This document shows positions 6,912 to 61,249 of a stretch of 64,000 nucleotides of DNA, in pieces. Origin of the DNA: Prevotella sp. HUN102 (GTDB lineage Bacteria > Bacteroidota > Bacteroidia > Bacteroidales > Bacteroidaceae); NCBI RefSeq assembly GCF_000688375.1, contig NZ_JIAF01000001.1, positions 496,001 to 560,000 on the forward strand, in the 5' to 3' direction. The number at the start of each line of letters is the position of its first letter. Positions within the stretch are counted from its first letter, which is position 1. The notes beneath the pieces are model-generated. The model saw nothing but the letters and a program-made list of their open reading frames with translations. It was not told where the DNA came from and ran no database searches. The position numbers and the translations under genes are program-made.

Positions 6912-6999
6912 CATTCTTCGCAAAAACGCATTTCATTCTTCGCACAAATGCAACGCAATCTTCGCAAGAATGCGCTGCGTTCTTCGCACGTTCAGAATG
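6912..6999 (+). repeat. four-unit 22-bp dyad array, copy 1
   Basis: Four contiguous 22-base units beginning at 6912, 6934, 6956 and 6978. All four have CGC at the dyad centre (pattern FFFF). The first 17 bases of each follow CATTCTTCGCAAGAATG with substitutions; the last five vary. The conserved tail seen after copies 3, 4, 5 and 10 is not present here. Confidence 0.9.
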
Positions 7000-7141
7000 C
7001 AAACGCAGCGTATGTATAATTATACAAGAATTGATTAGAATAAAGCCGAGGCTAATTCCCGCACTATATATCTTTCGCAATAAATCGGATGTATTTGCGT
7101 TAGCATTATAAGAAGACTTATCCCTTACATCGTTCAATATA

Positions 7142-7756
7142 ATGAAGATAGACAACATACTGAACAAGATACGGCAGATAGAACACGGTTTTCAGCACAT
7201 TATTGATGGAACTGATGAAATTCTTTCTGCATACTCAAACGAACAATCTTTTAATCTTGCTCTTGAACTGTTCAAGCACGAAGCCTATCAGGCACGAATG
7301 CTGGCTACAACGATATTAGGCAGATTGGCAGCAACGAATGACGAAGCCCTTGGTTTTCTAAAAGAACAAGTAAGCATAGATGAAAACTGGCGTGTACAGG
7401 AAATGCTCGCAAAGGCTTTTGATGGAGTTTGCAAGCACAGGGGATATGAAATGTCTTTACCTCTCATTAAAGAATGGATGAATAGCGACAATCCGAATGT
7501 TGTCCGTGCCGTAACAGAAGGGTTGAGAATTTGGACAAGCCGTCCATTCTTCAAAGAAAACCCATCAGTTGCCATTGCTCTGATCAGCAAACATAAGGCA
7601 CACGAAAGTGAGTATCTCCGTAAATCCGTTGGAAATGCTTTGAGAGACATAAGCAAGAAGCACGCAGAATTAATACGGAAGGAAGTACAGCAATGGGATT
7701 TGAATAATCCAAAAGTTCTTTTTACCTACAAACTTGCAGCAAAGTTGCTGAAATAA
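7142..7756 (+). CDS. HEAT-repeat protein, AlkC/AlkD-like DNA alkylation repair family
   Basis: A 204-residue all-helical protein that resembles the HEAT-repeat DNA glycosylases of the AlkC/AlkD group, which remove alkylated bases. The most recognisable stretch is near the C-terminus: SRPFFKENPSVAIALISKH and HESEYLRKSVGNALRDISKK. This is the pattern of AlkC-like proteins, where successive HEAT helices line a DNA-binding groove. The N-terminal part (FKHEAYQARMLATTILGRLA) fits the same repeats. I did not identify catalytic residues, and the protein is somewhat short, so activity is uncertain. It is 8 bases upstream of the HXXEE gene and probably co-transcribed. Confidence 0.7.
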   Translation: MKIDNILNKIRQIEHGFQHIIDGTDEILSAYSNEQSFNLALELFKHEAYQARMLATTILGRLAATNDEALGFLKEQVSIDENWRVQEMLAKAFDGVCKHRGYEMSLPLIKEWMNSDNPNVVRAVTEGLRIWTSRPFFKENPSVAIALISKHKAHESEYLRKSVGNALRDISKKHAELIRKEVQQWDLNNPKVLFTYKLAAKLLK

Positions 7757-7764
7757 AAGAAAAG

Positions 7765-8295
7765 ATGATGAATTTAGAACTGATAATGATACTTCTCCCC
7801 ATTGTATTTATGGTTCACGAATACGAGGAGATTATTATGTTCAAACGGTGGCTTGGGCAGAATAGGAATGAACTGAAAAGGCGTTTTCCGAGATTCGAGC
7901 AGTTTCTTGCAAGCAGGGGATATTTTGATTATTCAACAGCTACATTTGCCATAGGAACAGCCCACGAGTTCATTCTGATTTCCGTTGTTTCTTTCTGTGC
8001 CGTATGGTTCGATGCTTATCAATGGTGGTTCGCAGCATTTGCAGGCCATTCCATACACCTTATGGTGCATCTTGCACAATGGGCAGTCTATCGAAAGTAC
8101 ATACCTGTCATCATTACCACAATCCTGACATTGCCTTATTGCATCTATGCCTTTGCAGAATTTGCAAAAGCCTCTATTCTATCTCCTACGCAGATGTGTT
8201 TATGGGCAGCAATCGGCGTTGTTCTTATGGTGCTTAGCCTGCTCTCTGCATTGTTCCTTATGGACAAGTTTCAAAAGTGGCAGAATAAACATTGA
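7765..8295 (+). CDS. HXXEE domain membrane protein
   Basis: A 176-residue integral membrane protein with the family-defining HXXEE motif (HEYEE) near residue 18, in MVHEYEEIIMFKRW. Later conserved histidines are AHEFI, GHSIH and MVHLAQW; such spaced histidines could bind a metal, although no function is established for this family. About five hydrophobic segments are seen. The start codon is the first of two ATGs, 8 bases after the stop of the HEAT-repeat gene, after an A-rich stretch with no strong Shine-Dalgarno. Confidence 0.75.
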   Translation: MMNLELIMILLPIVFMVHEYEEIIMFKRWLGQNRNELKRRFPRFEQFLASRGYFDYSTATFAIGTAHEFILISVVSFCAVWFDAYQWWFAAFAGHSIHLMVHLAQWAVYRKYIPVIITTILTLPYCIYAFAEFAKASILSPTQMCLWAAIGVVLMVLSLLSALFLMDKFQKWQNKH

Positions 8296-8392
8296 GTTAA
8301 ATAATTAAGTATATATCCATTGAATTTCACATTATGATACTTAACAAATTTAAAAGATGGGCAGTTTCTGTGTGAGTATCAGCTTTTTTTCG

Positions 8393-8400
8393 TATTTTTG
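8393..8400 (+). promoter_or_regulatory. -7 element for the mmdA operon
   Basis: TATTTTTG matches TAnnTTTG exactly, about 67 bases before the mmdA ATG, in the 172-base gap after the HXXEE gene. Confidence 0.6.
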
Positions 8401-8467
8401 CACGTAATTTATTGGAATTATTCAACTATAATTCATTTTAGACTTTACAAAGAAAATAAATATATTT

Positions 8468-10033
8468 ATGAGTAAGCAAACTGAAAAAATCAAAGAGCTC
8501 GTAGCAAAAAGAGAGCAAGCTCGCTTGGGTGGTGGCGAAAAAGCTATCGAAAAGCAGCACGCTCGTGGTAAATATACTGCTCGTGAGCGCATCGAAATGT
8601 TGGTGGACAAAGGTAGTTTTGAGGAATATGATATGTTCAAACTCCACCGTTGCCACAACTTCGGAATGGAAAAGAAGCAGTTCTACGGCGATGGTGTCGT
8701 AGCCGGTTCGGCAACAATCGACGGCCGTCTGGTCTATGTATATGCACAGGACTTTACCGTTAATGGTGGTTCGCTCTCTGAAACGATGGCTCAGAAGATT
8801 TGCAAGATTATGGATATGGCTATGACAAACGGCGCACCCGTAATCTGTATGAACGACTCCGGTGGTGCCCGCATTCAGGAAGGTATTACTTCTCTGGCCG
8901 GTTATGCTGAAATTTTCGAGCGCAACATTCTCGCTTCAGGTGTGGTTCCGCAGATTTCAAGCATCCTCGGTCCGTGTGCCGGTGGTGCTGTTTACTCTCC
9001 CGCCCTCACGGACTTCATCATTATGAAGGAAGAAACAAGTTATATGTTCCTCACAGGTCCGAAGGTTGTTAAGACTGTAACGGGCGAAGACATCGACGCT
9101 GAGGGTCTCGGAGGTGCAAGCGTACACGCTACAAAAAGCGGTGTTACCGGTTTCACGGCTAAGACGGAGGAAGAGGCAATGGAAATCATCAAGACTTTGC
9201 TCTCCTATATTCCTTCAAACAACCGTGAGGAAGCTCCACGTGTTGAATGTACTGACCCTATCGACCGAAAGGAAGACTTGCTGAACGAAATCATTCCTGA
9301 CGATCCTAATCAGGCATACGATATGTATAAGGTAATCAAGGCCGTAACCGACAACGGAGATTTCTTTGAGATTCAGCCTAAATTTGCCAAGAACATCATT
9401 ACCGGTTTCGCCCGTTTCAACGGTCAGAGCGTGGGTATCGTGGCCAATCAGCCGTCAGCTTACGCAGGCGTGCTCGATGCAAATGCAAGCCGTAAGGGTG
9501 CTCGTTTCGTTCGTTTCTGCGATGCTTTCAACATTCCAATCGTGTCGCTTGTAGACGTTCCGGGCTTCTTGCCGGGCACAGGTCAGGAATACAACGCCGT
9601 GATTCTCCACGGAGCGCAGTTGCTCTACGCTTACGGAGAAGCCACCGTTCCAAAGATTACCATCACACTTCGCAAGAGCTACGGTGGTTCTCATATCGTT
9701 ATGGGCTGCAAGCAGTTGCGTTCCGACCTCAACTATGCATGGCCGAGTGCCGAAATCGCAGTTATGGGTGCGTCGGGTGCCGTTGCTGTGCTCTGTGGTA
9801 AGGAAGCAAAGCAGGTCAAGGATGAAGGCGGCGACGTCAAGGCATTCCTCGCTGAGAAGGAAGAAGAGTACACAGAGAAGTTCGCCAATCCGTATGAAGC
9901 AGCACAGTATGGCTACATCGACGACGTAATCGAACCTCGCAACACTCGTTTCCGCATTTGCCGCGGCTTGGCTCAGTTGGCTCATAAGAAGCAGAATTTG
10001 CCGGCGAAGAAGCACGGTTGTATGCCAATGTAA
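8468..10033 (+). CDS. mmdA: methylmalonyl-CoA decarboxylase alpha / acyl-CoA carboxyltransferase
   Basis: Carboxyltransferase subunit that moves a carboxyl group between an acyl-CoA (propionyl/methylmalonyl-CoA) and biotin on the carrier protein two genes downstream. The 521-residue protein has the usual two crotonase-like halves. Visible signatures are [14 protein letters not shown] and [16 protein letters not shown] in the first half, and [13 protein letters not shown] and [15 protein letters not shown] in the second. A propionyl-CoA carboxylase beta subunit would look nearly the same; the downstream small protein and carrier, and the lack of a biotin carboxylase gene, favour a decarboxylase. 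No membrane beta subunit (mmdB) lies in this cluster. Confidence 0.92.
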
Positions 10034-10052
10034 TCATCAATAGGAGAATAAA

Positions 10053-10202
10053 ATGGACAAAAACAAATTTGCAGCTATTGCAATGGCACTCTTTGAGTAC
10101 AGTGGCAATAATGTACACGATATCGAACCGGGCATCATTACCATCAAACCTAAGTGTACGATGTGGGATGCCAAGTTTGAGATTATGACCCAGAAACCAT
10201 AA
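10053..10202 (+). CDS. 49-residue MmdE/OadG-tail-like small subunit
   Basis: A short gene between mmdA (19-base gap) and mmdC (8-base gap), preceded by TAGGAGAATAAA, a good ribosome binding site. The product begins MDKNKFAAIAMALFEYSGNN and ends TMWDAKFEIMTQKP. The pattern 'AIAMAL-acidic/histidine-GIITIKP-W-x-K' resembles the soluble C-terminal tail of OadG/MmdD subunits of sodium-pumping decarboxylases, without their membrane helix. Veillonella methylmalonyl-CoA decarboxylase has a comparable small epsilon subunit (MmdE), reported to resemble the delta-subunit C-terminus. Assignment to that group is inference from pattern and position; that it is a real gene is well supported by spacing and ribosome binding site. 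Confidence 0.8.
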   Translation: MDKNKFAAIAMALFEYSGNNVHDIEPGIITIKPKCTMWDAKFEIMTQKP

Positions 10203-10210
10203 GATAAAAA

Positions 10211-10636
10211 ATGAAAGAATTCAAATATACAATCGACGGTAAGGAATACAATGTCGAAATCGGCAGTATCAGCGAAGACTTCGTAGCTGACGTAAAGGTG
10301 AATGGCGAAGCATTCCAAGTTCAGATGGAGAAACCGGCAGAACCAGAGAAGAAAAAGGTTGAACTCGGCAAGCCTGTTGCAGAGGAAAGCGCAGCATCAG
10401 GCGCACCTGCAAACTTCAATGCTTCCAATGCCATCAAGGCTCCGCTTCCGGGCACTATCACTTCAATCGAGGTGGAAGTGGGTCAGGACGTGAAAGCCGG
10501 CGACACAGTTCTCGTGCTCGAAGCTATGAAGATGCAGAACAATATCGAGGCTGAAAAGGACGGAAAGGTAACCGGTATCATTGTAAAAGTAGGTCAGGCA
10601 GTTCTCGAAGACGAGCCAATGATCGTTATTGAATAA
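10211..10636 (+). CDS. mmdC: biotin carboxyl carrier protein (gamma subunit)
   Basis: Biotin carrier of the decarboxylase/carboxylase. The 141-residue protein has an N-terminal beta-rich segment (about 1-40), then a charged and Pro/Ala-rich linker (EKPAEPEKKKVELGKPV and on to about 72). A C-terminal biotinyl domain follows, with the canonical EAMKMQN motif; K107 is the expected biotinylation site. Gly and Pro positions flanking the lipoyl-type hairpin (APLPGTI, VGQDVKAGDTVLVLEAMKM) are intact. Last gene of the operon, followed by a strong terminator at 10691. Confidence 0.95.
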   Translation: MKEFKYTIDGKEYNVEIGSISEDFVADVKVNGEAFQVQMEKPAEPEKKKVELGKPVAEESAASGAPANFNASNAIKAPLPGTITSIEVEVGQDVKAGDTVLVLEAMKMQNNIEAEKDGKVTGIIVKVGQAVLEDEPMIVIE

Positions 10637-10690
10637 ATAAGGAGATTGCTGAATTAAGGCAAACTCCGTAATTCACATCGAAGATAAAGA

Positions 10691-10726
10691 TAAAAGCAGG
10701 TATCGCTTGATACCTGCTTTTATTTT
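10691..10726 (+). terminator. rho-independent terminator after mmdC
   Basis: 14-bp perfect stem (TAAAAGCAGGTATC / GATACCTGCTTTTA), 4-base loop GCTT, followed by TTTT, 55 bases after the mmdC stop. Confidence 0.85.
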
Positions 10727-10765
10727 AACCGAACTCCGGTGGAGCTAAGCGAAAACTTCTCTGAC

Positions 10766-10805
10766 CAACAAAAAACAGGGAGCAATCGGTTGATTGCTCC
10801 CTGTT
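10766..10805 (-). terminator. rho-independent terminator after eno
   Basis: Stem AACAGGGAGCAATC (10774-10787) and GATTGCTCCCTGTT (10792-10805), loop GGTT; read on the minus strand it is followed by TTTTTTGTTGG. It lies 24 bases after the enolase stop. Confidence 0.85.
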
Positions 10806-10828
10806 CTATAATTTAGCGTAAGCGTTGT

Positions 10829-12148
<1,320 letters not shown>

Positions 12149-12305
12149 TTATTTTTAATATAATAAAATATAAACCTTATCATTCTTTTAGATTCCATAT
12201 TGAAAATGAATGCCGACACAAACTGTGTGGATGTTATCCAATTCTCAAACAACATTTTTCTTAGCGTTGAGGAAACAGCTTTCGCATAAGCTCATTTTCG
12301 GAGTT

Positions 12306-12313
12306 CAAAATTA
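12306..12313 (-). promoter_or_regulatory. -7 element for eno
   Basis: TAATTTTG on the minus strand, predicting a leader of about 160 bases for eno. Several A+T-rich alternatives lie closer to the gene, so this is only a candidate. Confidence 0.35.
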
Positions 12314-12695
12314 TAAAAAAAGAATGAACGGAGCAAACATTTCACAGAAAATAACACGGCTTTCAGCCACTATAACAAGGCTATTTCACATTGTTTCAAT
12401 ATCTCTTTCGTTTTTGTAATGTGCAGATTGCAAAAGGTTTACGTTTATTCGGTCCACAATAGGGGCAACAATGGGGCTCGATCGGTCGCAGTAGGCAGAC
12501 AGGATTACAAATTCCGGAATTTGGAAGCACGTTTATTAAAATCTAATTAATGGGTAAACAGATTTACAAAACACTAAAAAAGATGATTCCTATACATTCA
12601 TCGTCTTCCATCGGACCATATTTAAAGATGGCGCAACACCTCAATCAACAATAATTTGTAAGTGTCTGAAAATCAAAGAATAAAATATAAGGTTG

Positions 12696-12783
12696 CAAAC
12701 GTGCGAAGATTGCATTTCATTCTTCGCAAGAATGCAACGCAAACGTGCGAAGATTGTAAGCCATTCTTCGGTTACTTGCAAAG
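12696..12783 (-). repeat. four-unit 22-bp dyad array, copy 2
   Basis: Units at 12696, 12718, 12740 and 12762; centre triplets GCG, CGC, GCG, CGG (pattern RFRF, last unit diverged). An inverted version of the conserved tail (reads TTGATTTTCAGACACTTACA on the minus strand) starts about 20 bases left of the array, so this copy appears to lie in reverse orientation. Confidence 0.88.
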
Positions 12784-12923
12784 TGCCTGAAATTGGATTG
12801 AAAACGGGACGGGCAAACAGGAAAACAAGCGTACAGTAATAATGCCCTGCCCTGATGAATAACACACGCTATATCTTGTCATTCATCGTCCAGAATTTGA
12901 TTTTTCAGCAGACAATAAGAGCC

Positions 12924-14155: not shown

Positions 14156-15163
14156 TTAACGGACTACAACCTTAGAAGTCTTAACAGTACCGTCCAACAT
14201 CTTAACCACCTTGATATTAACGCCGGTAGTTGGCTGTGCAACACGCTTACCTGTAACGTCGAAGTAAACTACTTCTGCTGCCTCTTCGTTAGAATCTACT
14301 GTGCTGATACCTGCTGTAAATGCGCCAGTACCCTTGAGTTCGCAAGCTGTATAGAACTCAACAACAGCCAAATCAGCTCTGTCGTTATTGAAAACTACCG
14401 AAGTTGCAGGCTTGAGTGTGTACTTGTCTTCAGCCGGGTTGTAAACAAATACAACATCTGCCAAGTCTGTTATATCATCGAGTTCTTTCATTTCCTTTGA
14501 TGCGCTCCCAAGAATAATTTCAAGTTAGTTGCAATGCCAATATACTGACCCTTAGGGAATGTTACCACATTGTTTGCATCGATAGTACCCTTAACGGCAG
14601 CATTAGCGCATTCTTCGATATTGAGAAGACCCTGGAAATAAACATCGCTCCCTACACGTCCTACCTTCACAGTTCCGTCAAACTCATTTTTACCAGTTTT
14701 ACTGGCAGCATTTGGAGCCGTCATCGCTAAGATTGAGCTTGATGTTATCACCGTCGATTGTGTAAGTAAAAGACTTATCAGTGCTTTTTACATAATCGTC
14801 ACCTTTAAATTCATATACATCAACATTCAACAATGTGGTACCTGTTTCGCCGAGATCAGGCAAGAAGAATACAGTCTGACCAATAGGAACTGTGATTGTA
14901 TTGCCTTCTTTCGTACCTTTTACCCAAGTACCGATGGCGATTTCTGCAATAGGGTCCTTGATGTAAACTCCATTGGATGCAGTTGTAACCACTTCCAGTG
15001 TAGTGTTCTTGAACACGTGGATCTCGCCCGTATCAGAGTTAATAAACTTACCAGTACGGTTGTAAACCTTGTGTGTACCTTCAGGCACAACAGTGATCAT
15101 GTTTTGTGCAGTTGCTCCGATTGCCATCATAGCAACAAGAGCGAGGAGTAAAATTTTTCTCAT
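14156..15163 (-). pseudogene. secreted repeat protein with C-terminal sorting-type tail, two frameshifts
   Basis: One ancestral gene read in three pieces. Piece 1 (15163 to about 14700) begins with a signal peptide (MRKILLLALVAMMAIGATAQ) and holds one beta-rich module (GNTITVPIGQTVFFLPD). Piece 2 (about 14735 to 14520) is in another frame and carries a second copy of the module (NNVVTFPKGQYIGIAT). Piece 3 (about 14525 to 14156) returns to the first frame and ends with VVYFDVTGKRVAQPTTGVNI and TSKVVVR, a pattern like type IX sorting or BspA-type C-terminal domains. The arithmetic implies a one-base insertion near 14700-14735 and a one-base loss near 14521-14528 (ACTAA-CTTGAA, possibly from AAA). 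The intact protein would be about 335 residues. It could be a true pseudogene or a pair of sequencing errors; conserved coding content on both sides of each shift suggests recent damage. Confidence 0.75.
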
Positions 15164-15492: not shown

Positions 15493-15629
15493 AAACACGA
15501 TTTGCAATCTTCGCAAGAATGCAATTCATTCTTCGCAAAAATGCAGCGCAATCTTCGCAAGAATGGAATGCAATCATCGCAAGATTGGAAAACGAATTTT
15601 TATCCGTTGATTTTCAATTACTTACAAAC
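15493..15629 (+). repeat. full 137-bp repeat module, copy 3 (array 15505-15592)
   Basis: Left flank AAACACGATTTG (15493-15504); four 22-base units at 15505, 15527, 15549 and 15571, all with CGC centres (FFFF); 14 variable bases; then the tail TTGATTTTCAAT, T/A, ACTTACAAAC-like (15607-15629). Flank and tail positions match copies 4, 5 and 10 exactly. Confidence 0.92.
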
Positions 15630-15807
15630 AGTATGAAATTATACTTTACATAATTTTGATTGGCAGGCTGATGAAGTGCGGCAATATGTATAATTTCCTG
15701 TCGGCAGCATTTTGCAATGCTTGATTCAAGCAAGGATTGGTCATTACTTTTGCCTTTTACGATTATATTCTTTTAATTTTTTAACTTTTTATTCTTTAAC
15801 TTTTTCT

Positions 15808-17584: not shown

Positions 17585-17721
17585 TAAAGCGTTTTGCGTT
17601 TTTGCGAAGATTGCGTTGCATTCTTCGCAAAAACGCATTGCAATCTTCGCAAGAATGCAGCGCAATCTTCGTATAAATGGAAACGTGTTCTTTATTAACT
17701 GATTATCAATGATTTAACTAA
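17585..17721 (+). repeat. 137-bp repeat module, copy 4 (array 17597-17684)
   Basis: Units at 17597 (GCG centre), 17619, 17641 (CGC) and 17663 (CGT), pattern RFFF. The left flank is weaker (ends GCGTTTTG); the tail begins at 17699 as CTGATTATCAATG, exactly 15 bases after the array, but its second half has drifted (ATTTAACTA). Located between two convergent genes. Confidence 0.88.
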
Positions 17722-21180: not shown

Positions 21181-21317
21181 GAACACGGTTTGCAAGTAAC
21201 CGAAGAATGCAATCCATTCTTCGCAAAAACGCAGCGCAATCTTCGCAAGAATGGAATGCAATCTTCGCAAGATTGGAAATTGATTTTCAGACACTTGATT
21301 TTCAATCACTTACAAAC
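21181..21317 (+). repeat. full 137-bp repeat module, copy 5 (array 21193-21280)
   Basis: Left flank GAACACGGTTTG (21181-21192); units at 21193 (reverse-type, diverged centre CCG), 21215, 21237 and 21259 (CGC), pattern RFFF; tail TTGATTTTCAAT, C, ACTTACAAAC at 21295-21317, exactly 15 bases after the array. Confidence 0.92.
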
Positions 21318-21457: not shown

Positions 21458-22743
21458 TTAGAGTTTGTCCAATGCCTGACGAATATCGTCCAGCAAGTCG
21501 TCTATATCCTCAATACCAACCGAGAAACGGATGAGGTCGGGCGCAATGCCTGCATCGCGCAGTTGCTCGTCGGAGAGCTGACGGTGTGTGTGGCTTGCCG
21601 GATGCAGCACACAGGAACGGCAGCCGGGCACGTGTGTTACGATGTTGATGAGTTCCAGCGAATCCATCCACTTGATGGCAGTTTCACGGTCGCCCTTCAG
21701 TCCGAACGACAACACGCCGCAAGAGCCGTTCGGCAGATATTTCTGCGCACGTTCATAGTTCTCGTTTCCTTCCAATCCACAGTAATTTACCCACGCCACA
21801 CGTGAATCATTGTTCAGAAATTCGGCAATCTTCTGCGCATTTGCGCAATGCTGACGGATGCGAGATGCAGACTTTCCATTCCGAGATTGAGAAGGAAGGC
21901 GTTTTGCGGACTTTGAATGCTTCCGAGGTCGCGCATCAACTGCGTCGTCATCTTGGTAATATAGGCAAGTTTGCCGAAATTCTCCGTGTAGGTAAGGCCG
22001 TGATAAGAATCGTCCGGCGTGGTAAGACCGGGGAATTTATCCTTGTTTGCAGTCCAGTCGAAGTTGCCGCTGTCGATGATTGCGCCACCTACGGCCACTG
22101 CGTGTCCGTCTAAATACTTAGCGGTAGAGTGCGTTACGATGTCACATCCCCACTCTATCGGGCGACAGTTGATTGGTGTTGCAAAGGTATTGTCCACTAT
22201 CAGCGGCACACCATTCCTGTGAGCAATGCCTGCAAATTTCTCAATGTCGAGCACGGAGCAGCCGGGATTGGAGATTGTCTCGCCGAACAGCAGCTTAGTG
22301 TTCGGCCTGAAAGCCTTCTGAATCTCTTCTTCGGGAAGATTCGGGTTGATGAAAGTACATTCAATGCCCATCTTCTTCATTGTTACGCCGAAGAGATTGT
22401 AGGTTCCTCCGTAGATTTCATTTGATGAAATGATGTGGTCGCCTGCTGAACAGATGTTCAGAACGGCATAGAAACTTGCTGCCTGACCTGAAGAAGTGAG
22501 CATACCTGCCACGCCACCTTCGAGTGCTGTCAGCTTTCTTGCCACATTGTCCAGCGTAGGATTCTGCAAGCGCGAATAGAAATAGCCCTCTTTTTAAAGG
22601 TCGAAGAGCATTGCCATTTCCTCTGAATTGTCGTACTTGAACGTAGTGCTTTGCACGATTGGCACTGCAATAGGCTCGCCATTCTTTGGTTCTCACCCTG
22701 CTTTCACGCAGAGTGTGGAAGGTTTTAGTTTTCTGTTTCCCAT
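21458..22743 (-). pseudogene. metY: O-acetylhomoserine sulfhydrylase, decayed
   Basis: A PLP enzyme of the MetY/cystathionine-gamma-synthase family, which makes homocysteine from O-acetylhomoserine and sulfide. From the ATG at 22743 the frame reads MGNRKLKPSTLCVKAG, then TGA at codon 17 (22693-22695) where homologues have Trp, then EPKNGEPIAVPIVQSTTFKY. TAA follows at codon 50 (22594-22596) where Glu is expected in FDL-E-KEGYFYSR. The frame then runs intact through the PLP region (HSTAKYLDGHAVAVGG) until a one-base deletion near 21861-21864, after which RIRQHCANAQKIAEFLNND and the C-terminus continue in another frame to 21458. Total length (about 428 codons) equals a normal MetY, so the gene was complete. 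Three independent lesions make sequencing error unlikely. The terminator is intact. Confidence 0.92.
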
Positions 22744-28412: not shown

Positions 28413-28545
28413 TTTTTGACGGCTTTAATAAACTGTTGATTTACAACGAATTAAATCCTATCACCCAATAATCAGGACAAAGCACGCCATATATTCTTCG
28501 CAAGAATAGCAGAAAATAGGTCAAAATACGGCAATGACAGCGAAA

Positions 28546-28633
28546 CATTCTTCGCAAAAACGGATTGCATTCTTGCGAAGAATGCAAAACAAACTTCGCA
28601 AGAACGTTTGGCAGTTGTGCGAAGAATGGAAAA
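28546..28633 (+). repeat. four-unit 22-bp dyad array, copy 6
   Basis: Units at 28546 (CGC), 28568 (GCG), 28590 (CGC) and 28612 (GCG): FRFR. Unit 2 holds the cleanest GCG-centred dyad, GCATTCTTGCGAAGAATGC. An extra single unit lies out of register at 28492. The sequence GCGTTTTTCGGTAAAT, three bases, TTTTACAA begins 73 bases after the array, the same spacing as in copy 8. Confidence 0.9.
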
Positions 28634-28878
28634 TAAACTCGCAAATTCGGATTTATATTCTTTGTTTTATCTGTCCGGATTTTCTATTTTCAGATTTTTC
28701 AAAGGGCGTTTTTCGGTAAATCATTTTTACAATATTTATTTATGAGTTCGGGACAGTTGCAAACTTATAGGTAGAAAACTACAAACAAAAAGAATGCAAA
28801 ACTTTCAAGAGATTCTGTCGCTCTTGAATGCTTTGCATCCTCTGTGGGAAAAACAATATCCGTAATTCGGTCAGCCGC

Positions 28879-35700: not shown

Positions 35701-35890
35701 ATTATTTAAATCCAAATAGCCATACAAACTGATAATTAGAAATATAAAATTATCTTTTTTAAGAATGGATAGCCTATAAAGTGAGATTCAACTAAAAAAT
35801 GTTTTGAAAAACATTACCTCTCGGCTTTGCTGTTTCCTCTCTCACGGATTTCAAGGAAGCACGGATATTATGAATATAAATTCATTTTAC

Positions 35891-35923
35891 AACTACTTGT
35901 AATTCAATGTATTACAAGTAGTT
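35891..35923 (-). terminator. hairpin after the coiled-coil gene, adjoining the array
   Basis: 13-bp perfect stem AACTACTTGTAAT / ATTACAAGTAGTT with a 7-base loop, two bases from the array. No strong T run follows, so its role as terminator of the tamB operon is tentative. Confidence 0.45.
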
Positions 35924-35925: not shown

Positions 35926-36013
35926 CATTTTTGCGAAGAATGCACTCCATTCTTCGCAAGAATACATTTCAAACGTGCGAAGATTGCCTTCCAATCTTCG
36001 CACGTTTGAAATG
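35926..36013 (+). repeat. four-unit 22-bp dyad array, copy 7
   Basis: Units at 35926 (GCG), 35948 (CGC), 35970 (GCG) and 35992 (CGC): RFRF. Units 3 and 4 form a 13-bp inverted repeat (AAACGTGCGAAGA / TCTTCGCACGTTT). In place of the usual tail, GCGTTTTTC begins 15 bases after the array. Confidence 0.9.
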
Positions 36014-44059: not shown

Positions 44060-44452
44060 ACCCAGATGCCTTTGACAGTAGCTACATTATTATATAACAA
44101 CATTGCAAAGTAACACAAAAAAACTGGAATTACGAAAAATCTACACATTAATTTTACGATATTAATATGCAACGCTCGGGATAGACGGACAAGCGTACAA
44201 GGAAACAAGCCTGAGAGGCAAGCGCAAATATATCTTTCCGTTCTGAATAATCTTAACAAAACACTCTCCATAATTCGATTATTTTGAACGAAATGTTTTT
44301 TATTTTCAAATACGCGAGTTTTGCGTGTGCAATCTTAAACTACTATATATCAACACACTAAGAGCAACACACCAGTCAATGTGCAGAAAGAAAGCATCAG
44401 AGACTTCCCAAACAGAACATTATATCATACCAAAAGAACAGAATTTACAGTA

Positions 44453-44540
44453 AATTCCTCACGGAAACGGCATACGTTCTTGCGAAGAACGATTTGCATT
44501 TATCGCAAGAATGGAAGACAATCTTCGGATATTTCAGAAA
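44453..44540 (+). repeat. 22-bp dyad array, copy 8 (first unit degenerate)
   Basis: Clear units at 44475 (GCG), 44497 (CGC) and 44519 (CGG); the 22 bases before them (44453-44474) resemble a decayed fourth unit. The block GCGTTTTTCGGTAAAT, three bases, TTTTACAA begins 73 bases after the array, as in copy 6. Confidence 0.75.
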
Positions 44541-44641
44541 CAATGTTCCCAAAACTAAAAAACATTGGTGGGAAGAAGGCTGAAAATTCTCCAGATTACT
44601 GAAAAATTTTATGCGTTTTTCGGTAAATGGATTTTACAAAA

Positions 44642-52538: not shown

Positions 52539-52626
52539 CAAACATGCGAAGATTGCAGCTCATTCTTCGCAAAAATGGAATGCAAATGTGCGAAGATTGA
52601 ATTGCATTCTTCGCACGTTTGCATCA
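52539..52626 (+). repeat. four-unit 22-bp dyad array, copy 9
   Basis: Units at 52539 (GCG), 52561 (CGC), 52583 (GCG) and 52605 (CGC): RFRF. Units 3 and 4 form an imperfect 13-bp inverted repeat. A CACTTACAAAC sequence, like the end of the conserved tail, lies upstream (about 52522-52532) rather than downstream. Confidence 0.9.
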
Positions 52627-54926: not shown

Positions 54927-54950
54927 TATGTTATTTCTCCTAAATGGTTT

Positions 54951-56732
54951 CTAATCCAACTTCAATACGGCCAAGAACGCTTTCTGCGGCACCTGTACAT
55001 TGCCCACCTGCTTCATACGTTTCTTACCTTTCTTCTGTTTTTCCAAGAGCTTTCGCTTTCTGCTCACGTCACCACCATAACACTTAGCCGTTACGTCCTT
55101 GCGCACCTGCTTGATGGTTTCGCGCGCCACAATCTTCCCTCCGATGGCTGCCTGAATGGCAATATCAAACTGCTGGCGAGGAATCAGTTCCTTTAATTTC
55201 TCGCACATTCTGCGTCCGAAGGCTACGGCGTTGCTGTCGTGAGTCAGCGTAGATAGTGCGTCCACAGGCTCTCCATTCAGCAATATGTCCAGTTTTGCCA
55301 GTTTCGACGGACGGAACGAGTCTATATGATAATCGAATGAAGCATATCCCTTGGAAATACTCTTCAGTTTATCGTAGAAATCTATCACGATTTCGCCCAA
55401 CGGAATCATAAAAATCAGTTCCAGACGGTTGCCGCTCACGTAGTTCTGACTGACGAGTTCGCCTCGTTTGTCCAGACAGAGCGTCATAATCGGACCGATA
55501 TAATCAGCCGAAGTAATGATGGATGCCTTGATATACGGCTCTTCAATATGCTCAATCATCGTAGGTTCAGGCAGCCCCGATGGGTTATGCACCTCGCGGA
55601 TCTCGCCCAACTTGTCGTAAACCATATAGCTTACGTTCGGAACGGTCGTAATCACATCCATATTGAACTCACGGTCCAGACGTTCCTGAATGATTTCCAT
55701 GTGCAGAAGTCCGAGGAATCCGCATCGGAAACCGAATCCCAGAGCCTGAGAACTTTCAGGAGAGAATGTCAGCGAGGCATCGTTCAACTGTAATTTCTCC
55801 AAGGATGCACGCAGGTTTTCGTAATCACTCGGATCAACCGGATATACGCCGGCAAACACCATAGGCTTAACCACTTGAAAACCTTCGATGGCACTTTCGC
55901 AAGGACGATCAATATGCGTTACGGTATCGCCCACTTTCACTTCACGTGCGTTCTTAATGCCCGATATTATATATCCTACCTCGCCCGTACTCAGCTCTTT
56001 CGTAGGCTTCATATCCATCTTCAGCACGCCCACTTCGTCGGCATCGTATTCCATTCCCGTCTGAACGAACTTCACTTTGTCGCCTTTCTTTATCGTTCCG
56101 TTCGTTACCTTGCAGAGCGTGATAATGCCGCGGAAGGAATTGAAAATGGAATCGAAAATCAATGCCTGCAACGGCGCGTTCTTGTCGCCCACAGGTGCAG
56201 GCACACGCTTGATGATTGCATCCAGAATGGCAGGTACACCTTCTCCGGTCTTGCCACTGGCACGAATGATGTCCTCTCGTTCGCAGCCAATGAGGTCGAT
56301 GATTTCGTCCTCAACTTCCTCCGGCATAGCGTTAGGCATATCAATCTTGTTGATTACCGGAATAATCTCGAGATTGTTATCAATGGCCATATACAGGTTG
56401 GAAATGGTCTGTGCCTGAACGCCTTGCGTGGAATCGACTATGAGCAGCGCACCCTCGCACGCCGCAATACTTCGCGAAACCTCATAGGAAAAGTCTACGT
56501 GTCCCGGAGTGTCAATCAGGTTGAGCACGTACTTCGTTCCCTCTTGTTCGTACTCCATCTGAATGGCGTGACTCTTGATTGTGATTCCTCTCTCACGTTC
56601 CAAATCCATATCATCAAGCATCTGACCACTCGTTACCTGAATAGTTTTCGTAAACTCCAAGAGACGGTCGGCTAATGTGGATTTTCCGTGATCAATATGC
56701 GCAATGATACAGAAATTTCTTATATGATCCAT
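54951..56732 (-). CDS. lepA: elongation factor 4 (LepA)
   Basis: Ribosome-associated translational GTPase that aids initiation or back-translocation. 593 residues with the canonical G motifs (HIDHGKST, G1; RERGITI, G2; DTPGHVD, G3; NKIDMP, G4), domains II and III, the EF-G-like domain V, and the LepA-specific C-terminal domain ([40 protein letters not shown]). Leader about 18 bases from the -7 element. Confidence 0.97.
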
Positions 56733-56755
56733 TGAAATATTATTCTTTTATCAGG

Positions 56756-56763
56756 CAAAATTA
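56756..56763 (-). promoter_or_regulatory. -7 element for lepA
   Basis: TAATTTTG on the minus strand, 24 bases before the lepA ATG. Confidence 0.55.
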
Positions 56764-56817
56764 CGAATAAAAAGCGAAATATACGAAAGAACAATTCATA
56801 AAATACTACATTTTTTC

Positions 56818-56825
56818 TATCTTTG
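56818..56825 (+). promoter_or_regulatory. -7 element for the small lipoprotein
   Basis: TATCTTTG, divergent to the lepA promoter; leader of about 75 bases to the ATG at 56908. Confidence 0.55.
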
Positions 56826-56907
56826 CATTCTGATTATTCGGATGATTTCATTTGGAAAGCAACTCCGATTCATCTTCACAACAATTCCAATAAAACGTTT
56901 TATAGTG

Positions 56908-57300
56908 ATGAAAAAGTTTTTTGTTTTCTGCATTGCAGCCTTATCGCTCGCCGGATGCCACGACAGCTTGGAAGAACGTGCCAAAAAAGACACGGAAATG
57001 TACACGCTCAAGAAGTGTCCTACGCCGATTATCTACAATGAACGCACCGACAGTATCGTTTTTGAGCCCGACACCCGAACGCTGCACTATCATCTTTCAC
57101 TGTTCAATGAAGCTGACGATGATGCCGTCATAGCCTTGGTAAAGGATAAAAAGACTGCAAATCTGCTTGAAATCCTGAAGAATGATATGCAGAGAAAGGC
57201 CTATAAGGACGAAGGATTCAATTTCAGATACACCTACGTATCGGGCAAGAATCCGAAGAAGGTCTACATAGACGTAATTTTCAAGAAAGGAGATTATTAA
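56908..57300 (+). CDS. small lipoprotein, function unknown
   Basis: A 130-residue lipoprotein: signal MKKFFVFCIAALSLAGC with lipobox LAGC (C17), then a mixed alpha/beta domain (HYHLSLFNEADDDAVIALVK, FRYTYVSGKNPKKVYIDVIF). I recognise no family. An in-frame ATG at 56842 would add 22 residues that disrupt the signal peptide, so 56908 is preferred. Stand-alone gene between divergent and convergent neighbours, with its own promoter. Confidence 0.8.
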   Translation: MKKFFVFCIAALSLAGCHDSLEERAKKDTEMYTLKKCPTPIIYNERTDSIVFEPDTRTLHYHLSLFNEADDDAVIALVKDKKTANLLEILKNDMQRKAYKDEGFNFRYTYVSGKNPKKVYIDVIFKKGDY

Positions 57301-57368
57301 GATTATCTGCCGGAAGAAACGGCAAAACCAGATAATAGAACAAAAAGAACATTGTCTTACAATATTCA

Positions 57369-57412
57369 AACGGAGTGTTCCAATATTCATTTGAATACCG
57401 GAACACTCCGTT
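57369..57412. terminator. bidirectional terminator before yebC
   Basis: 13-bp perfect stem AACGGAGTGTTCC / GGAACACTCCGTT with a further inner pairing (TATTCA/TGAATA). It lies between convergent genes; T-rich sequence follows mainly on the plus strand. Confidence 0.7.
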
Positions 57413-57435
57413 CTCCTTATATTATTAAGTCAATA

Positions 57436-58173
57436 TTATTCAGCTTTATCAGCCGGTTTCATATTGGTATATACATTCTGCACGTCGTCGAAGTCTTCGA
57501 GCTTGTCAATCATCTTCTCAATCGTCTCACGTTCTTCATCGCTAACTTCCTTCAAATCGTTAGGAATGCGTGTGAACTCTGCCGATGTGATTTCAAAACC
57601 GTTGTCTTCCAAGTGCTTCTGAATCTCACCGAAACTTGTCGGTTCGCCGTAGATGGTGATTTCTCCCTCTTCTTCGTCGAGGTCGAACTCATCTTCCACT
57701 CCGTAATCAATCAAATCGAGAATCAATTCATCCATATCCAGTCCTTCCTTCGCCTTGAAACTGAACACAGACTTGTGGTCGAAGAGGAACGAAAGTGAAC
57801 CCTGCGTACCGAGTGTGCCATTGAACTTGTTGAATACCGAACGGACATCACCCACGGTGCGTGTGGTATTGTCGGTCAAGGTATCCACGAAGATGGCAAT
57901 TCCGTGAGGTCCGTATCCTTCATACGGCACTTCCTTGTAGTCGCTTGTATCCTTACCCATAGCGTTCTTGATGGCACGCTGGATATTGTCCTTTGGCATA
58001 TTCTCGCGCTTACAAGTTGCGATAATCGCACGCAAGCGTGGGTTTGTTTCCGGTTCAGGGCCACCAGCCTTTACGGCGATAGCGATTTCCTTACCCAATT
58101 TTGTGAAAGTACGAGCCATGTGGCCCCATCTCTTCAGCTTAGCAGCTTTACGATATTCAAATGCTCTTCCCAT
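57436..58173 (-). CDS. yebC: YebC/PmpR family translation or transcription factor
   Basis: A 245-residue member of the YebC/PmpR family (RWGHMARTFTKLGKEIAIAV, IERAIKN-type IQRAIKNAMGKDTSDYKEVP, YEGYGPHGIAIFVDTLTDNT, RSVFNKFNGTLGTQGSLSFL). The family regulates transcription in some bacteria and helps ribosomes through proline stretches in others. It lies 13 bases after pheT, so it is the second gene of that operon. Start ATG at 58173 gives the normal length. Confidence 0.94.
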   Translation of the reverse strand: MGRAFEYRKAAKLKRWGHMARTFTKLGKEIAIAVKAGGPEPETNPRLRAIIATCKRENMPKDNIQRAIKNAMGKDTSDYKEVPYEGYGPHGIAIFVDTLTDNTTRTVGDVRSVFNKFNGTLGTQGSLSFLFDHKSVFSFKAKEGLDMDELILDLIDYGVEDEFDLDEEEGEITIYGEPTSFGEIQKHLEDNGFEITSAEFTRIPNDLKEVSDEERETIEKMIDKLEDFDDVQNVYTNMKPADKAE

Positions 58174-58186
58174 TGGAATTGTTCAT

Positions 58187-60655
58187 TTAGCGGAGTTCTG
58201 CTCCGAGTTTATTTGTTAAATTTTTAATTAATTTCTGCATAATGGCGTCGATAGCCTTGTCGTTCAGGGTCTTGCTCTCGTCCTGAAGAATGAAGTTCAC
58301 GGCATAGCTCTTCTTACCTTCAGGCAGATTCTTGCCCTCGTAAACGTCGAAAAGCTCCACCTTCTTCAGCAGTTTCTTCTCGCTCTCACGTGCAATCTGC
58401 TCTATCTGTGCAAATTCCACATTGGAATCGAGCAGCAATGCGAGGTCGCGGCTGACGCTTGGATACTTGGATATCTCTTCAAACTGAAGATTGTTCTTGC
58501 GAACGGCCTTCATCAAGCCCGTCCAGTTCAGCTCAGCATAGTAAACCGGCTGTGCAATATCCATCTTCTTGAGCAGTTTATGGCTCAAGATACCCATCTC
58601 GACAACCACCTTTCCGGCACGGGTCTTCAGTGCCAAAGCCTTGTCGAAGATGTTATTATCAGATGATTCTGCAACTATCATTCCCTGTGCCACACCGATA
58701 CGGCGGAGAATATTCTCCACGTGAGCCTTCAGTTCATAGAAAGTGCTGTCTTCGTTGGCGTGCGCCCAAGAGCCTTCAACACGCTTGCCGGTTACCCAAA
58801 GTCCCAAGTGGTAAGTCTGATTGTAGGCCTTGATAGGACTTTCCTCGCTCCACTTCTCCTGTTCGTACTTATAGGTGTTGCCCATCTCAAAGAACTTCAG
58901 GTTCTGTGCCTTGCGGTTCACATTTCTCCTGATGCTCTCCAGACCACCGAAGAGCAATGTCTGGCGCATAACGCCCAAATCGCTCGACAACGGATTCATC
59001 AGTTTTACGGTCTGTTCCCAAGGATAAGCGTTCAGCTCCGTCCCTTCATAGTAAGACGATGCCGTGAGCGAATTGTTCAGAATCTCGTTGAAACCTGCGC
59101 CAACAAGCTGCTCGCTGATGATATCTTCCTTATGATGGTTCTTGTCTGCTTCTTCAGCAATGGTGAGAGACGACTTCAAGGTAGTCGGAATCTCCACATT
59201 ATTATATCCATAGATACGCAGAATATCCTCCACAACATCACACGCACGCTGAACATCCACACGATAGGGAGGAACGATGAGGTCGAGCCCTTCGGCATCT
59301 TCCTTCACTATTTCCATTTCAAGACTCTGTGCAATGCTCTTGATGGTTTCGGCACCGAGCTGCTTACCAATCAAACGATCGGCATATTCATAGTTCAGAC
59401 GAACGGGGAAGCCTTCCATCTTCGTGGGATATTCGTCACGGATTTCCATACTTACCTTCGCACCGGCCAATTCCTTACAAAGGATTGCAGCCTGCTTCAG
59501 GGCGTAGATAGTGCCGTTAGGGTCGATACCACGCTCGAAACGGAAGCTGGCATCGGTGGACAAACCGTGGCGGCGGGCACTCTTGCGAATCCACGTGGGA
59601 TGGAAATAAGCACTCTCCAAAATCACGTCCTTCGTATTTTCGTAAGTGCCGCTGCCCTTTCCACCGAACACACCTGCGATACACATCGGTTCTTCGGCGT
59701 TGCAGATAGCCAGGTCGTGCTCTCCGAGCGTGTGTTCCTCGCCATCGAGCGTAACGAACTTCTTACCTTCGTTCTTGTCTTTCACGATAATCTGTCTGCC
59801 TGTTACCATATCTGCATCGAAGCAGTGCATCGGCTGTCCGTAGGCCATCATCACGTAGTTCGTAATATCCACAATATTGTTGATAGGACGAACGCCGATA
59901 ATATTCAACTTATCCTTCAACCACTTCGGACTTTCCTTTACCTCACAGCCGGTTACGCTCAAGCAGGCATAACGACGGCACGCTTCTGCATTCTCTATCT
60001 TAACATCAATTTCAAGATCGTGATTATCTACAACAAACTTATCGCAATCCGGGCGGTGCAATGAAGTTTCATAGCCATTCTGTTTCAGCCACGCATAGAG
60101 GTCGCGGGCTACTCCATAGTGGCTCAAAGCGTCGGCACGGTTGGCAGTTATGTCTATTTCCAAGAGCCAGTCGCTGTCCAACTGATAGTATTCGGCTGCC
60201 GGCATACCCACCTGAGCATCTTCCGGCAAAACGATGATACCGTCGTGGCTCGTGCCCACACCGATTTCGTCCTCGGCACAAATCATACCCAAGCTCTCAA
60301 CGCCTCTGAGTTTGCTCTTCTTGATTGTGAAGCTCTCTTCGCCGTCGTAAAGCACGCAGCCCAAATCTGCCACGATTACCTTCTGCCCGGCTGCCACATT
60401 GGCCGCGCCGCAAACAATCTGCTGCGGCTCGCCTTTGCCCAAATCAACGGTGGTAACGTGAAGATGGTCTGAGTTCGGGTGCATCTCGCAGGTAAGCACC
60501 TTTCCCACGAAAAGCCCCTTGAGTCCACCACGAATCGTTTCCACTTCCTCCACGCTTCCGACTTCAAGTCCTGTGGATGTCAGCGCAGCCGCCAAATCCT
60601 GTGGAGTGAGGTCGAAATCCACGTATTCCTTAAGCCATTTGTATGAAATATTCAT
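58187..60655 (-). CDS. pheT: phenylalanyl-tRNA synthetase beta subunit
   Basis: Beta chain of the heterotetrameric PheRS. 822 residues of bacterial full length: N-terminal domain (MNISYKWLKEYVDFDLTPQD), tRNA-binding EMAP-like domain (VGKVLTCEMHPNSDHLHVTT), B3/B4 editing domain (NIVDITNYVMMAYGQPMHCF), B5 domain, catalytic-like core and C-terminal ferredoxin-fold anticodon-binding domain (ISKYPSVSRDLALLLDSNVE to the end). No pheS is adjacent, as often in Bacteroidetes. -7 element at 60712. Confidence 0.97.
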   Translation of the reverse strand: MNISYKWLKEYVDFDLTPQDLAAALTSTGLEVGSVEEVETIRGGLKGLFVGKVLTCEMHPNSDHLHVTTVDLGKGEPQQIVCGAANVAAGQKVIVADLGCVLYDGEESFTIKKSKLRGVESLGMICAEDEIGVGTSHDGIIVLPEDAQVGMPAAEYYQLDSDWLLEIDITANRADALSHYGVARDLYAWLKQNGYETSLHRPDCDKFVVDNHDLEIDVKIENAEACRRYACLSVTGCEVKESPKWLKDKLNIIGVRPINNIVDITNYVMMAYGQPMHCFDADMVTGRQIIVKDKNEGKKFVTLDGEEHTLGEHDLAICNAEEPMCIAGVFGGKGSGTYENTKDVILESAYFHPTWIRKSARRHGLSTDASFRFERGIDPNGTIYALKQAAILCKELAGAKVSMEIRDEYPTKMEGFPVRLNYEYADRLIGKQLGAETIKSIAQSLEMEIVKEDAEGLDLIVPPYRVDVQRACDVVEDILRIYGYNNVEIPTTLKSSLTIAEEADKNHHKEDIISEQLVGAGFNEILNNSLTASSYYEGTELNAYPWEQTVKLMNPLSSDLGVMRQTLLFGGLESIRRNVNRKAQNLKFFEMGNTYKYEQEKWSEESPIKAYNQTYHLGLWVTGKRVEGSWAHANEDSTFYELKAHVENILRRIGVAQGMIVAESSDNNIFDKALALKTRAGKVVVEMGILSHKLLKKMDIAQPVYYAELNWTGLMKAVRKNNLQFEEISKYPSVSRDLALLLDSNVEFAQIEQIARESEKKLLKKVELFDVYEGKNLPEGKKSYAVNFILQDESKTLNDKAIDAIMQKLIKNLTNKLGAELR

Positions 60656-60711
60656 TTATCTTGATATTTTATTTATTTCAAATTTATGAGAGTTTACTAT
60701 AAAGTAACGTG

Positions 60712-60719
60712 CAAAATTA
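60712..60719 (-). promoter_or_regulatory. -7 element for pheT-yebC
   Basis: TAATTTTG on the minus strand, 57 bases before the pheT ATG. Confidence 0.5.
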
Positions 60720-61112
60720 ATAAATTTTATCGATATGCCCAAATCTTAATCTACCTAATTAATACAGGCAGATGCAATTATAGGTTCGTTGGATTTGCAT
60801 CCGTTTTCCAACTGTCTTTCCTACCGGCGAAGAATCCTTGATGGGCTTAGCAAAACCTTTCATCTGCCGCCTGCTTTCGGAATAAGTCTATTGGACAATG
60901 AATCTATAAGTTTAATAATTCAGGGATAAATACATTGATAATCAAATTGTTTAACCATTTCTTTTCAATTCTTCTCGAAGCTCAGTCGTAATCTTCTCGC
61001 CCGTATATTCGTCTGTTGCCATATTATAATGAAATCCGATTTATCAACAAATCGGATGGGATTCTGCATCAGCCGTTCAGCAGAACAATTATCACGCTCG
61101 AGAAAGAGAAAC

Positions 61113-61249
61113 AAACACGTTTTGCAAGTATGCGAAGAATGCACTGCAATATTCGCAAAAACGCAACGCAAACGTGCGAAGATTGCAGCGCATTCTTCGC
61201 ACGTTTGAAACCAAGGAATATAACCATTGATTATCAATCACTTACAAAA
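61113..61249 (+). repeat. full 137-bp repeat module, copy 10 (array 61125-61212)
   Basis: Left flank AAACACGTTTTG (61113-61124); units at 61125 (GCG), 61147 (CGC diverged), 61169 (GCG) and 61191 (CGC), pattern RFRF; tail TTGATTATCAAT, C, ACTTACAAAA starting at 61227, exactly 15 bases after the array. Units 3 and 4 form a perfect 13-bp inverted repeat AAACGTGCGAAGA / TCTTCGCACGTTT with an 11-base loop. Confidence 0.92.

What the first reader, a model, noticed from the sequence alone, without database searches (positions are those of the whole stretch)
6912..61212. Ten intergenic arrays of exactly four 22-bp units in strict register
The window holds ten 88-bp arrays (starting at 6912, 12696, 15505, 17597, 21193, 28546, 35926, 44453, 52539, 61125), about one per 6 kb, all between genes. 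Each has four contiguous units with no spacers and no register slip (in the copy at 44453 the first unit is degenerate). The unit is CATTCTTCGCAAGAATG plus five variable bases. The constant copy number of four and exact 22-base period, about two helical turns, set it apart from ordinary satellites or decayed tandem repeats. The period would place all dyads on one face of the helix, so a nucleoid-type or regulatory protein that binds four dyads at once is one inference; a transcribed structured RNA is another. I know of no named family.
Basis: partly seen in the sequence, partly recalled or inferred. Interest (0 to 1): 0.85.

Follow-up and report, generated by a model that had tools for sequence, protein, structure and literature searches.

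The report
Four-step phased DNA repeat arrays
Between its genes this bacterium carries well over a hundred copies of a small DNA element made of four 22-letter steps; relatives carry elements with the same step length but mostly different letters, which suggests that a fixed spacing on the DNA helix, rather than a fixed sequence, is what is being kept.

Summary
The ten arrays are real. In the host genome 434 of 456 unit-to-unit steps measured at 159 loci are exactly 22 bp, no other step is under 44, and the longest unbroken run is four units at 135 loci. Most copies form one compact element: a leader dyad, a 19-bp gap, then four 17-bp near-dyads with 5-bp spacers; leader and unit centres lie 33 and then 22 bp apart. 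Other genomes of the genus carry intergenic arrays with mostly unrelated unit sequences but the same step, usually four or five units, and in some of them the leader again sits 19 bp away. Orthologous arrays differ by whole units. I found no gene-orientation bias, no clear target duplication and no consistent RNA pairing signal. Best reading: a dispersed non-coding element acting as a helically phased binding platform for an unidentified oligomeric protein. Nearest known kinds: PINSR (Prevotella intermedia) and BrickBuilt (Porphyromonas gingivalis). Protein and function are inferred, not shown.

The parts
6912..6999 (.). array of four 22-bp units (++++), between the cydB 3' end and a DNA-alkylation-repair-like gene; leader diverged
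12656..12676 (+). leader TTGTAAGTGTCTGAAAATCAA (1 mismatch to the pattern), 19 bp before the next array
   Evidence: (C1:508656)
12696..12783 (+). array, orientation -+-+ from the leader, between eno and a LysR-type regulator gene
15505..15592 (-). array of four units between divergent genes (one ending at 15163 -, sulP-like from 15813 +)
15607..15627 (-). leader of the array at 15505 (0 mismatches)
   Evidence: (C1:511607)
17597..17684 (-). array of four units between convergent genes; the leader to its right is diverged but its core lies 19 bp away
21193..21280 (-). array of four units
21295..21315 (-). leader of the array at 21193 (0 mismatches); a second leader core lies at 4 bp
   Evidence: (C1:517295)
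28492..28508 (+). single extra unit 54 bp before the array at 28546; part of the second element type
28546..28633 (+). array of four units inside the second element type
28706..28719 (-). outer motif TTACCGAAAAACGC (0 mismatches) of the second element type
35926..36013 (+). array, -+-+, with near-perfect inter-unit hairpins; leader-like sequence at 35887-35907 is diverged (5 mismatches)
44453..44540 (-). array, first unit degenerate, three scoring units; second element type
44613..44626 (-). outer motif TTACCGAAAAACGC (0 mismatches) of the second element type
52539..52626 (.). array, -+-+; leader unclear
61125..61212 (-). array of four units between divergent genes (pheT - / Zn_peptidase +)
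61227..61247 (-). leader of the array at 61125 (1 mismatch)
   Evidence: (C1:557227)

Best explanation
It is a high-copy, non-coding, dispersed intergenic DNA element. SHOWN by sequence: a leader (TTTGTAAGTNNTTGAAAATCAA, whose core is a near-palindrome), usually a 19-bp gap, and four 17-bp near-palindromic units separated by 5 bp, so that leader and unit centres lie 33, 22, 22 and 22 bp apart. The step is held while the sequence drifts within the genome and is mostly replaced between species. INFERRED: multiples of about 11 bp put all dyads on one face of the helix, so that an oligomeric DNA-binding protein can bind leader and units side by side and bend or bridge the DNA. What is selected is the geometry; the recognised letters change with the protein in each lineage. 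The element spreads as a dispersed repeat into intergenic DNA. Whether the bound complex serves chromosome organisation, transcription insulation or the element's own spread is not settled.
For: Register: 434 of 456 steps exactly 22 bp, no other under 44, against 1838 substitutions in 109 arrays, mean 16.9 per 83 bp. Internal control: the leader-array distance does vary, 40 in 97 and 39 in 12 of 109. Copies: 150 rows, the cap, weakest E 1.9e-23; 146 places after merging. Other species, outside long ORFs: lag 22 gives 28 of 43 clusters, no other lag more than 3, in 680 kb of seven genomes (18 of 31 at the stricter threshold); the profile hits that led to five of these genomes were not in the stretches read. 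Loci L072-L110 (738 kb): 0 of 24. Own high-copy units elsewhere: 215 + 210 strand hits in G010 and 297 + 292 in G349 for a unit pair absent from G000; 54 + 39 in G331 for another; reversed controls 0. Steps: 81 of 83 in G331 and 56 of 56 in the AAAAG-type loci, commonest number four units. Leader core exactly 19 bp from the array edge, with loci picked by leader or profile left out: 7 of 16 G000 arrays, 5 of 23 in G331, 2 of 18 AAAAG-type (one in G010, one in G349); a random position has it at 18-20 bp in 2 of 7840 cases. Gene context: of 46 distinct arrays with a called gene on each side, 0 in genes, 23 tandem, 12 convergent, 11 divergent, much as in gaps without arrays.
Against: No binding protein was found or sought directly; no expression or ChIP data were available. 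The leader core was absent or elsewhere in most arrays of G331 and the AAAAG loci, and was at 19 bp in none of 4 G001 and 10 G016 arrays (one each at 44 and 55 bp). G016 and G010, the two genomes not picked by the profile, gave 9 of 19 clusters at lag 22, but only 2 of 11 at the stricter threshold. A loose unit model for G016 gave 22 bp in 30 of 47 steps. The second element type has 54- and 91-94-bp offsets that are not clean multiples of 11. The leader motif also occurs elsewhere: of 30 leader loci in other genomes, lag 22 was the best period on one side in 4 and on the other in 6. Only 18 of 41 arrays have a significant dyad in the consensus unit. Species-specific, high-copy repeats are also what a mobile element would give. 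The 22-bp-pair searches picked the G331 and AAAAG loci, so at least one step there is 22 by selection.
Confidence: 0.5

Rival explanations
1. A non-autonomous mobile element (MITE-like) whose four 22-bp units are transposase-binding sites, much as Tn7's right end holds four partly overlapping 22-bp TnsB sites. A co-evolving transposase would keep the geometry while sequences turn over.
For: Dispersed high copy number, species-specific units, a second element type with an outer motif sharing the same module, asymmetric leader and tail. Tn7 right end so described in PMC11406308 (passage) and PMC8649781 (passages). BrickBuilt precedent.
Against: No general target-site duplication: the best offset for 4-mers had 7 of 109 against 1.1 expected, among 1350 offsets tried; old copies could have lost theirs. 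No terminal inverted repeat was seen in the leader-bearing type, by inspection only. No Y1_Tnp in this genome (controls rang in 5 of 14). A PF09299 search found nothing in 40 genomes, but no control rang, so it is inconclusive. The step persists in arrays that are on average 72% identical, where dead copies should have drifted.
Confidence: 0.3
2. A transcribed structured RNA, terminator or mRNA-stabilising hairpin.
For: Nine of ten window arrays fold with z of -2 or lower. Units 1 and 2 pair better than shuffled (WC 0.81, z 4.3). Arrays lie nearer to gene ends than to gene starts (median 138 against 256 bp).
Against: Units 3-4 z 0.9, units 2-3 z -5.4; A.C exceeds G.U in the first hairpin (0.043 to 0.017) and G.U exceeds A.C in the second (0.060 to 0.037), so no consistent strand signal. 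Spacers 1 and 3 do not co-vary. No gene-orientation bias: 47 gene ends and 45 starts face arrays. No clear strand bias, no Rfam match in the window. An RNA hairpin does not need a constant 22-bp DNA step.
Confidence: 0.12
3. An ordinary minisatellite maintained by slippage and gene conversion, with 22 bp a preference of the copying machinery.
For: Orthologous arrays in three related species have 5, 4 and 7 units, differing by whole units. Several unit families with the same step occur in one genome (six in G331, five in G193).
Against: In G000 the number is four at 135 of 159 loci, with a leader at a nearly fixed distance. Loci L072-L110, mostly outside Bacteroidales, show no 22-bp cluster outside long ORFs.
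Confidence: 0.08

Closest known systems
[quoted passage not shown]
   Same: Non-coding, intergenic, 177 and 184 copies in two strains, clade-specific, reported without terminal inverted repeats, similar size (188 bp against about 136 bp here), probably the same or a related genus.
   Different: Its sequence is only in a figure that is not held, so homology and a 22-bp step could not be tested. The text seen mentions no tandem units or phasing in it.
BrickBuilt MITE of Porphyromonas gingivalis (PMC4596501: abstract, section 5, section 7 part 1, passages)
   Same: Intergenic arrays of short contiguous units, with different leader and tail flanks.
   Different: 23-nt unit, 1 to 22.8 units per element, 19 copies, indels up to 6% within elements, terminal inverted repeats at both ends in 4 of 19.
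22-nt tandem direct repeats of P. gingivalis W83 (mentioned in PMC4596501, section 7; the original report not seen)
   Same: Same unit length, in the same order.
   Different: That paper says their locations were not given; number, sequence and phasing unknown to me.
Tn7 right end (PMC11406308 and PMC8649781, passages)
   Same: Four 22-bp protein-binding sites in a row.
   Different: Tn7's sites partly overlap and bound a large transposon with its own genes; here solitary short copies (146 places listed), near-palindromic units in both orientations, no clear target duplication.
REP / REPIN elements with RAYT transposase (PMC3733652, passages; PMC3116915, listing only)
   Same: Short palindromes, many copies, intergenic.
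   Different: No Y1 transposase in this genome; fixed four-unit array with a leader.

Membership tests
PINSR | 188-bp consensus sequence | not testable with these tools
   consensus is only in a figure; no supplement look-ups allowed
PINSR | intergenic and high copy | tested here: met
   0 of 46 arrays in genes; 146 places from a capped list
PINSR | no terminal inverted repeats | tested here: inconclusive
   none seen in the leader-bearing type by inspection; no dedicated test; the second type has an outer motif
BrickBuilt | 23-nt unit | tested here: not met
   22 bp in 434 of 456 steps, none 23
BrickBuilt | widely variable unit number (1-22.8) | tested here: not met
   four at 135 of 159 loci
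REP/RAYT | Y1 (IS200/IS605-type) transposase in the genome | tested here: not met
   PF01797: no match in G000, controls rang in 5 of 14
Tn7-like end | TnsB-type transposase (Mu-transpos_C) | tested here: inconclusive
   0 of 40 genomes, but no control rang
Tn7-like end | target-site duplication (5 bp, recalled) | tested here: not met
   for 5-mers the best offset had 3 of 109 (0.14 expected) and the next 4 of 109 (0.58 expected), among 1350 offsets; ancient duplications could be lost
CRISPR array | unique spacers, tens of bp long (recalled) | tested here: not met
   spacers are 5 bp and recur between arrays
Rfam RNA family | match at gathering score | tested here: not met
   0 matches in the window

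The most novel reading that the evidence does not exclude
These arrays are sites of a chromosome-organising system, general in this genus and perhaps wider in Bacteroidales, in which a multimeric protein reads dyads at 22-bp (two-turn) steps. Protein and sites co-evolve quickly, as centromere proteins and satellites do, so that species have new letters on an old ruler.
Probability: 0.25. Interest if true: 0.95.

Novelty: new variant of a known kind. Interest (0 to 1): 0.76.

Why it matters
Dispersed bacterial repeats are usually recognised by sequence. Here the sequence is mostly replaced between species while step length, usual unit number and, in part of the arrays of three species groups, leader distance are kept, so the constraint can be read off the geometry. 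That makes a protein-binding hypothesis directly testable (half-turn insertions, pull-down), and raises the question whether PINSR, BrickBuilt and other unnoticed repeats belong to one structural class that sequence searches cannot join.

Tried and rejected
Tannerella forsythia was my first guess for the host, from size and G+C; dropped, because the genus in the database holds several hundred species (one search drew 398 'from a larger group') and the best named enolase relatives include rumen MAGs labelled Prevotella or Prevotellaceae. The genus is probably Prevotella in the broad sense; no tool named it.

Terminator at gene ends: a crude flank reading suggested more stop codons facing arrays. 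A better gene caller (one search was spoiled by spurious short ORFs) gave 47 gene ends and 45 starts, so this was dropped.

One long hairpin (units 1:4 and 2:3 with paired spacers), suggested by some folds: rejected, because units 2-3 pair less well than shuffled and spacers do not co-vary.

RAYT-driven REP: no Y1_Tnp. Viral contigs: 34 leader-pattern hits, not examined one by one, and 0 for the two-unit hairpin pattern. Plasmids: only weak matches of at most 17% of the query among the 20 records listed of 24. Literature: the ten searches turned up no description of a genus-wide 22-bp phased class; open-access library only, and PMC4596501 does mention 22-nt tandem repeats in P. gingivalis W83.

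The R1 search of 398 genomes scored only 7 candidates per genome, so its 13 of 398 is no census; three of its hits (L338, L341, L345) look like coding sequence. In one search the G001 seed pattern matched nothing. In one search only arrays outside long ORFs with 28 of 44 matches were kept (41, five of them from G000); none came from the 100 kb of G412. One search used 46 units, five of them added by hand. Without ORF masking, period 21 is commoner than 22 in the named loci (33 against 15 clusters at a low threshold), and one lag-22 cluster occurs in L072-L110. The direct-lag scan is blunt: in the window it found 4 lag-22 clusters of the ten known arrays. first counted the leader distance with five loci that had been picked by leader or profile (L332, L414, L393, L395, L397); one search repeats it without them, and its lower counts are the ones reported.

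Full report
CHECK. The core unit with up to 3 mismatches matches 28 times in the window against a mean of 0.47 in shuffles. The window arrays lie 77 to 559 bp from the called genes on either side, between convergent, tandem and divergent pairs. Neighbours include cydAB, eno, a sulP-like transporter, an M64 peptidase, an Omp85 protein, an alpha-2-macroglobulin-like protein and pheT. Nothing about them suggests a regulon.

GENOME-WIDE CENSUS. The window is part of G000, 3.32 Mb in 4 contigs, 99.96% complete. I collected 159 loci: 149 stretches around listed hits of a 14-mer unit or of the leader plus the ten window arrays. Both hit lists were cut by the tool (119 and 112 matches counted, about 100 of each listed), two stretches overlap (L165, L166), and some leader hits have no array. 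With a weight matrix and no assumption about spacing beyond a 12-bp minimum, 434 of 456 successive unit distances are 22; the other 22 are 44 or more, among them 54 six times. The longest 22-bp chain is four units at 135 loci, five at 2, three at 9, two at 3, one at 5 and none at 5. A sequence profile of 93 elements gave 150 rows in G000, the cap, the weakest at E 1.9e-23, nearly all close to the full model length. Merging opposite-strand duplicates leaves 146 places, 4.5 per 100 kb on C1 and C4 and 3.6 on C3; strands 16/13, 46/59 and 5/7 (plus/minus), no clear bias.

ANATOMY. Of 109 arrays with a leader, 77 have unit orientation -+-+. The leader ends 19 bp before the array in 97 and 18 bp in 12. 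Conservation starts at TTTGTAAGT and fades shortly after the last unit (AAATCGTGTTT), about 136 bp in all. Arrays differ from consensus at 8 to 35 of 83 positions; mean pairwise identity is 0.72. So the array's step did not vary among these while the linker before it did (these 109 were chosen with intact 22-bp chains; the unselected count is the one above). A second element type holds the same four-unit module with an outer TTACCGAAAAACGC motif 91 or 94 bp from the array: 28546 and 44453 in the window and nine further loci, with four more shifted by one or so units (my reading); some have an extra unit at 54 bp.

OTHER SPECIES. The 14-mer of this genome occurs in 2 of 40 relatives counting itself and in 0 of 16 genomes around named loci; a two-unit pattern in 1 of 200 genus genomes, itself. 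Yet the profile's weak hits elsewhere were mostly arrays with other letters and the same step. A scan of periods 10-40 outside long ORFs gave 28 of 43 clusters at 22, and at most 3 at any other period, in 680 kb of seven genomes (18 of 31 at a stricter threshold); in the two genomes that the profile had not picked, G016 and G010, 9 of 19 (2 of 11 stricter); in the eleven loci nearest by enolase (labelled Prevotella, Prevotellaceae, Phocaeicola oris and others) 4 of 7; in thirty loci mostly of other Bacteroidales 2 of 6; in 738 kb of loci L072-L110, mostly outside Bacteroidales, 0 of 24; in 50 kb of E. coli 0 of 2. Forty-one arrays, five of them from G000, have 3 to 7 units, median 4.6, under an extension rule that tends to overshoot; 18 have a significant consensus dyad. 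Forty-six consensus units fall into 24 groups at 16 of 22 circular identity (largest value in 4000 shuffled pairs 15), up to six in one genome; not all species are apart, since the G412 unit groups with G000's and some G016 units with those of G001 and G331. Whole-genome counts show own high-copy units elsewhere: the AAAAG-type pair gives 215/210 strand hits in G010, 297/292 in G349, 25/24 in G374 and 0 in G000, G016, G331, G001 and G193; the AATATGGCTGA-type gives 54/39 in G331, one in G016 and 0 in the other four (reversed controls 0). These patterns fix a 22-bp pair and picked most of the loci used next; counting all units there, 81 of 83 steps in G331 and 56 of 56 in the AAAAG loci are 22, with four units the commonest number (15 of 30 and 10 of 18 arrays). 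The looser G016 model gave 30 of 47.

LEADER. The core YTGAWWWTCAR within 70 bp of an array edge lies at exactly 19 bp in 7 of 16 arrays of G000 (window plus six stretches), in 5 of 23 of G331, with no core at another distance there, and in 2 of 18 AAAAG-type arrays (one G010, one G349; a third array has it at 8 bp, centre distance 22) when loci picked by leader or profile are left out. One G000 array (21193) has a second core at 4 bp. In G001 (4 arrays) and G016 (10 arrays) it was never at 19 bp. A random position has it at 18-20 bp on one side in 2 of 7840 cases. Nineteen bp means 33 bp between the centres of leader and first unit. A longer leader pattern occurs in 287 of 398 genus genomes, G000 included, against 22 with the reversed control by my count of that table, but often away from 22-bp arrays.

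TURNOVER OF UNITS. Three related species (86-87% identical over 3.1 kb) have orthologous arrays of 5, 4 and 7 units, all steps 22. A second pair (94% identical) keeps all 7 units with 2 substitutions in 154 bp and no indel; the 200-bp windows around it are as well conserved (5 and 1 substitutions) and show no indels either, so this pair is no test of selection. In the first set, units come and go whole and in register.

HOW IT PROBABLY WORKS. The step is kept where sequence is not, the leader when present is mostly in the same phase, and orientation relative to genes does not matter. This fits a protein that reads one DNA face at multiples of about 11 bp better than an RNA or a terminator. RNA-type evidence was sought and is mixed: nine of ten window arrays fold well, units 1-2 pair above shuffling, units 3-4 do not, units 2-3 pair below it, and G.U does not consistently exceed A.C. 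These tests do not correct for relatedness among copies. Transposase binding is the main rival; the Tn7 right end is a real precedent for four 22-bp sites, but no general target duplication was seen, no Y1 transposase was found, and the search for a TnsB-type domain was uninformative.

LIMITS. Only parts of the other genomes were read. No strain comparison, expression or binding data were available. The PINSR sequence could not be compared.

Noticed in passing
28492-28719 and 44453-44626: Second element type: same four-unit module, outer motif TTACCGAAAAACGC 94 bp from the last unit, an extra unit at 54 bp in some copies; nine other loci of the genome show the motif at 91 or 94 bp.
   Followed up: partly
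about 44240-44330; also L018 and L028: A further dispersed repeat with CTCGCGTATTTGAAAA ... TTCAAAATAANCGA parts beside array-bearing loci.
   Followed up: no
L390, L391, L401, L402, L406, L408, L415: Leader-like motif followed by a nearly identical sequence (GTATTACTTTGTAGTAT ... CTACTACATTTGGCTACTACAAG) in seven different genomes (more diverged in L402); looks like another conserved element.
   Followed up: no
21458-22569: A 113-aa ORF matches only the end of a Cys/Met metabolism PLP enzyme and lies beside a second ORF on the same strand; the gene may be split.
   Followed up: no
15770-15805 and 21280-21311: Short 15-bp tandem repeats (TRF) near two arrays.
   Followed up: no
G000 contigs C1, C3, C4: No two of the 146 listed elements are closer than 2.3 kb although the mean gap is about 22 kb; this may only reflect one intergenic space per copy, and weaker copies are missing from the capped list.
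   Followed up: partly
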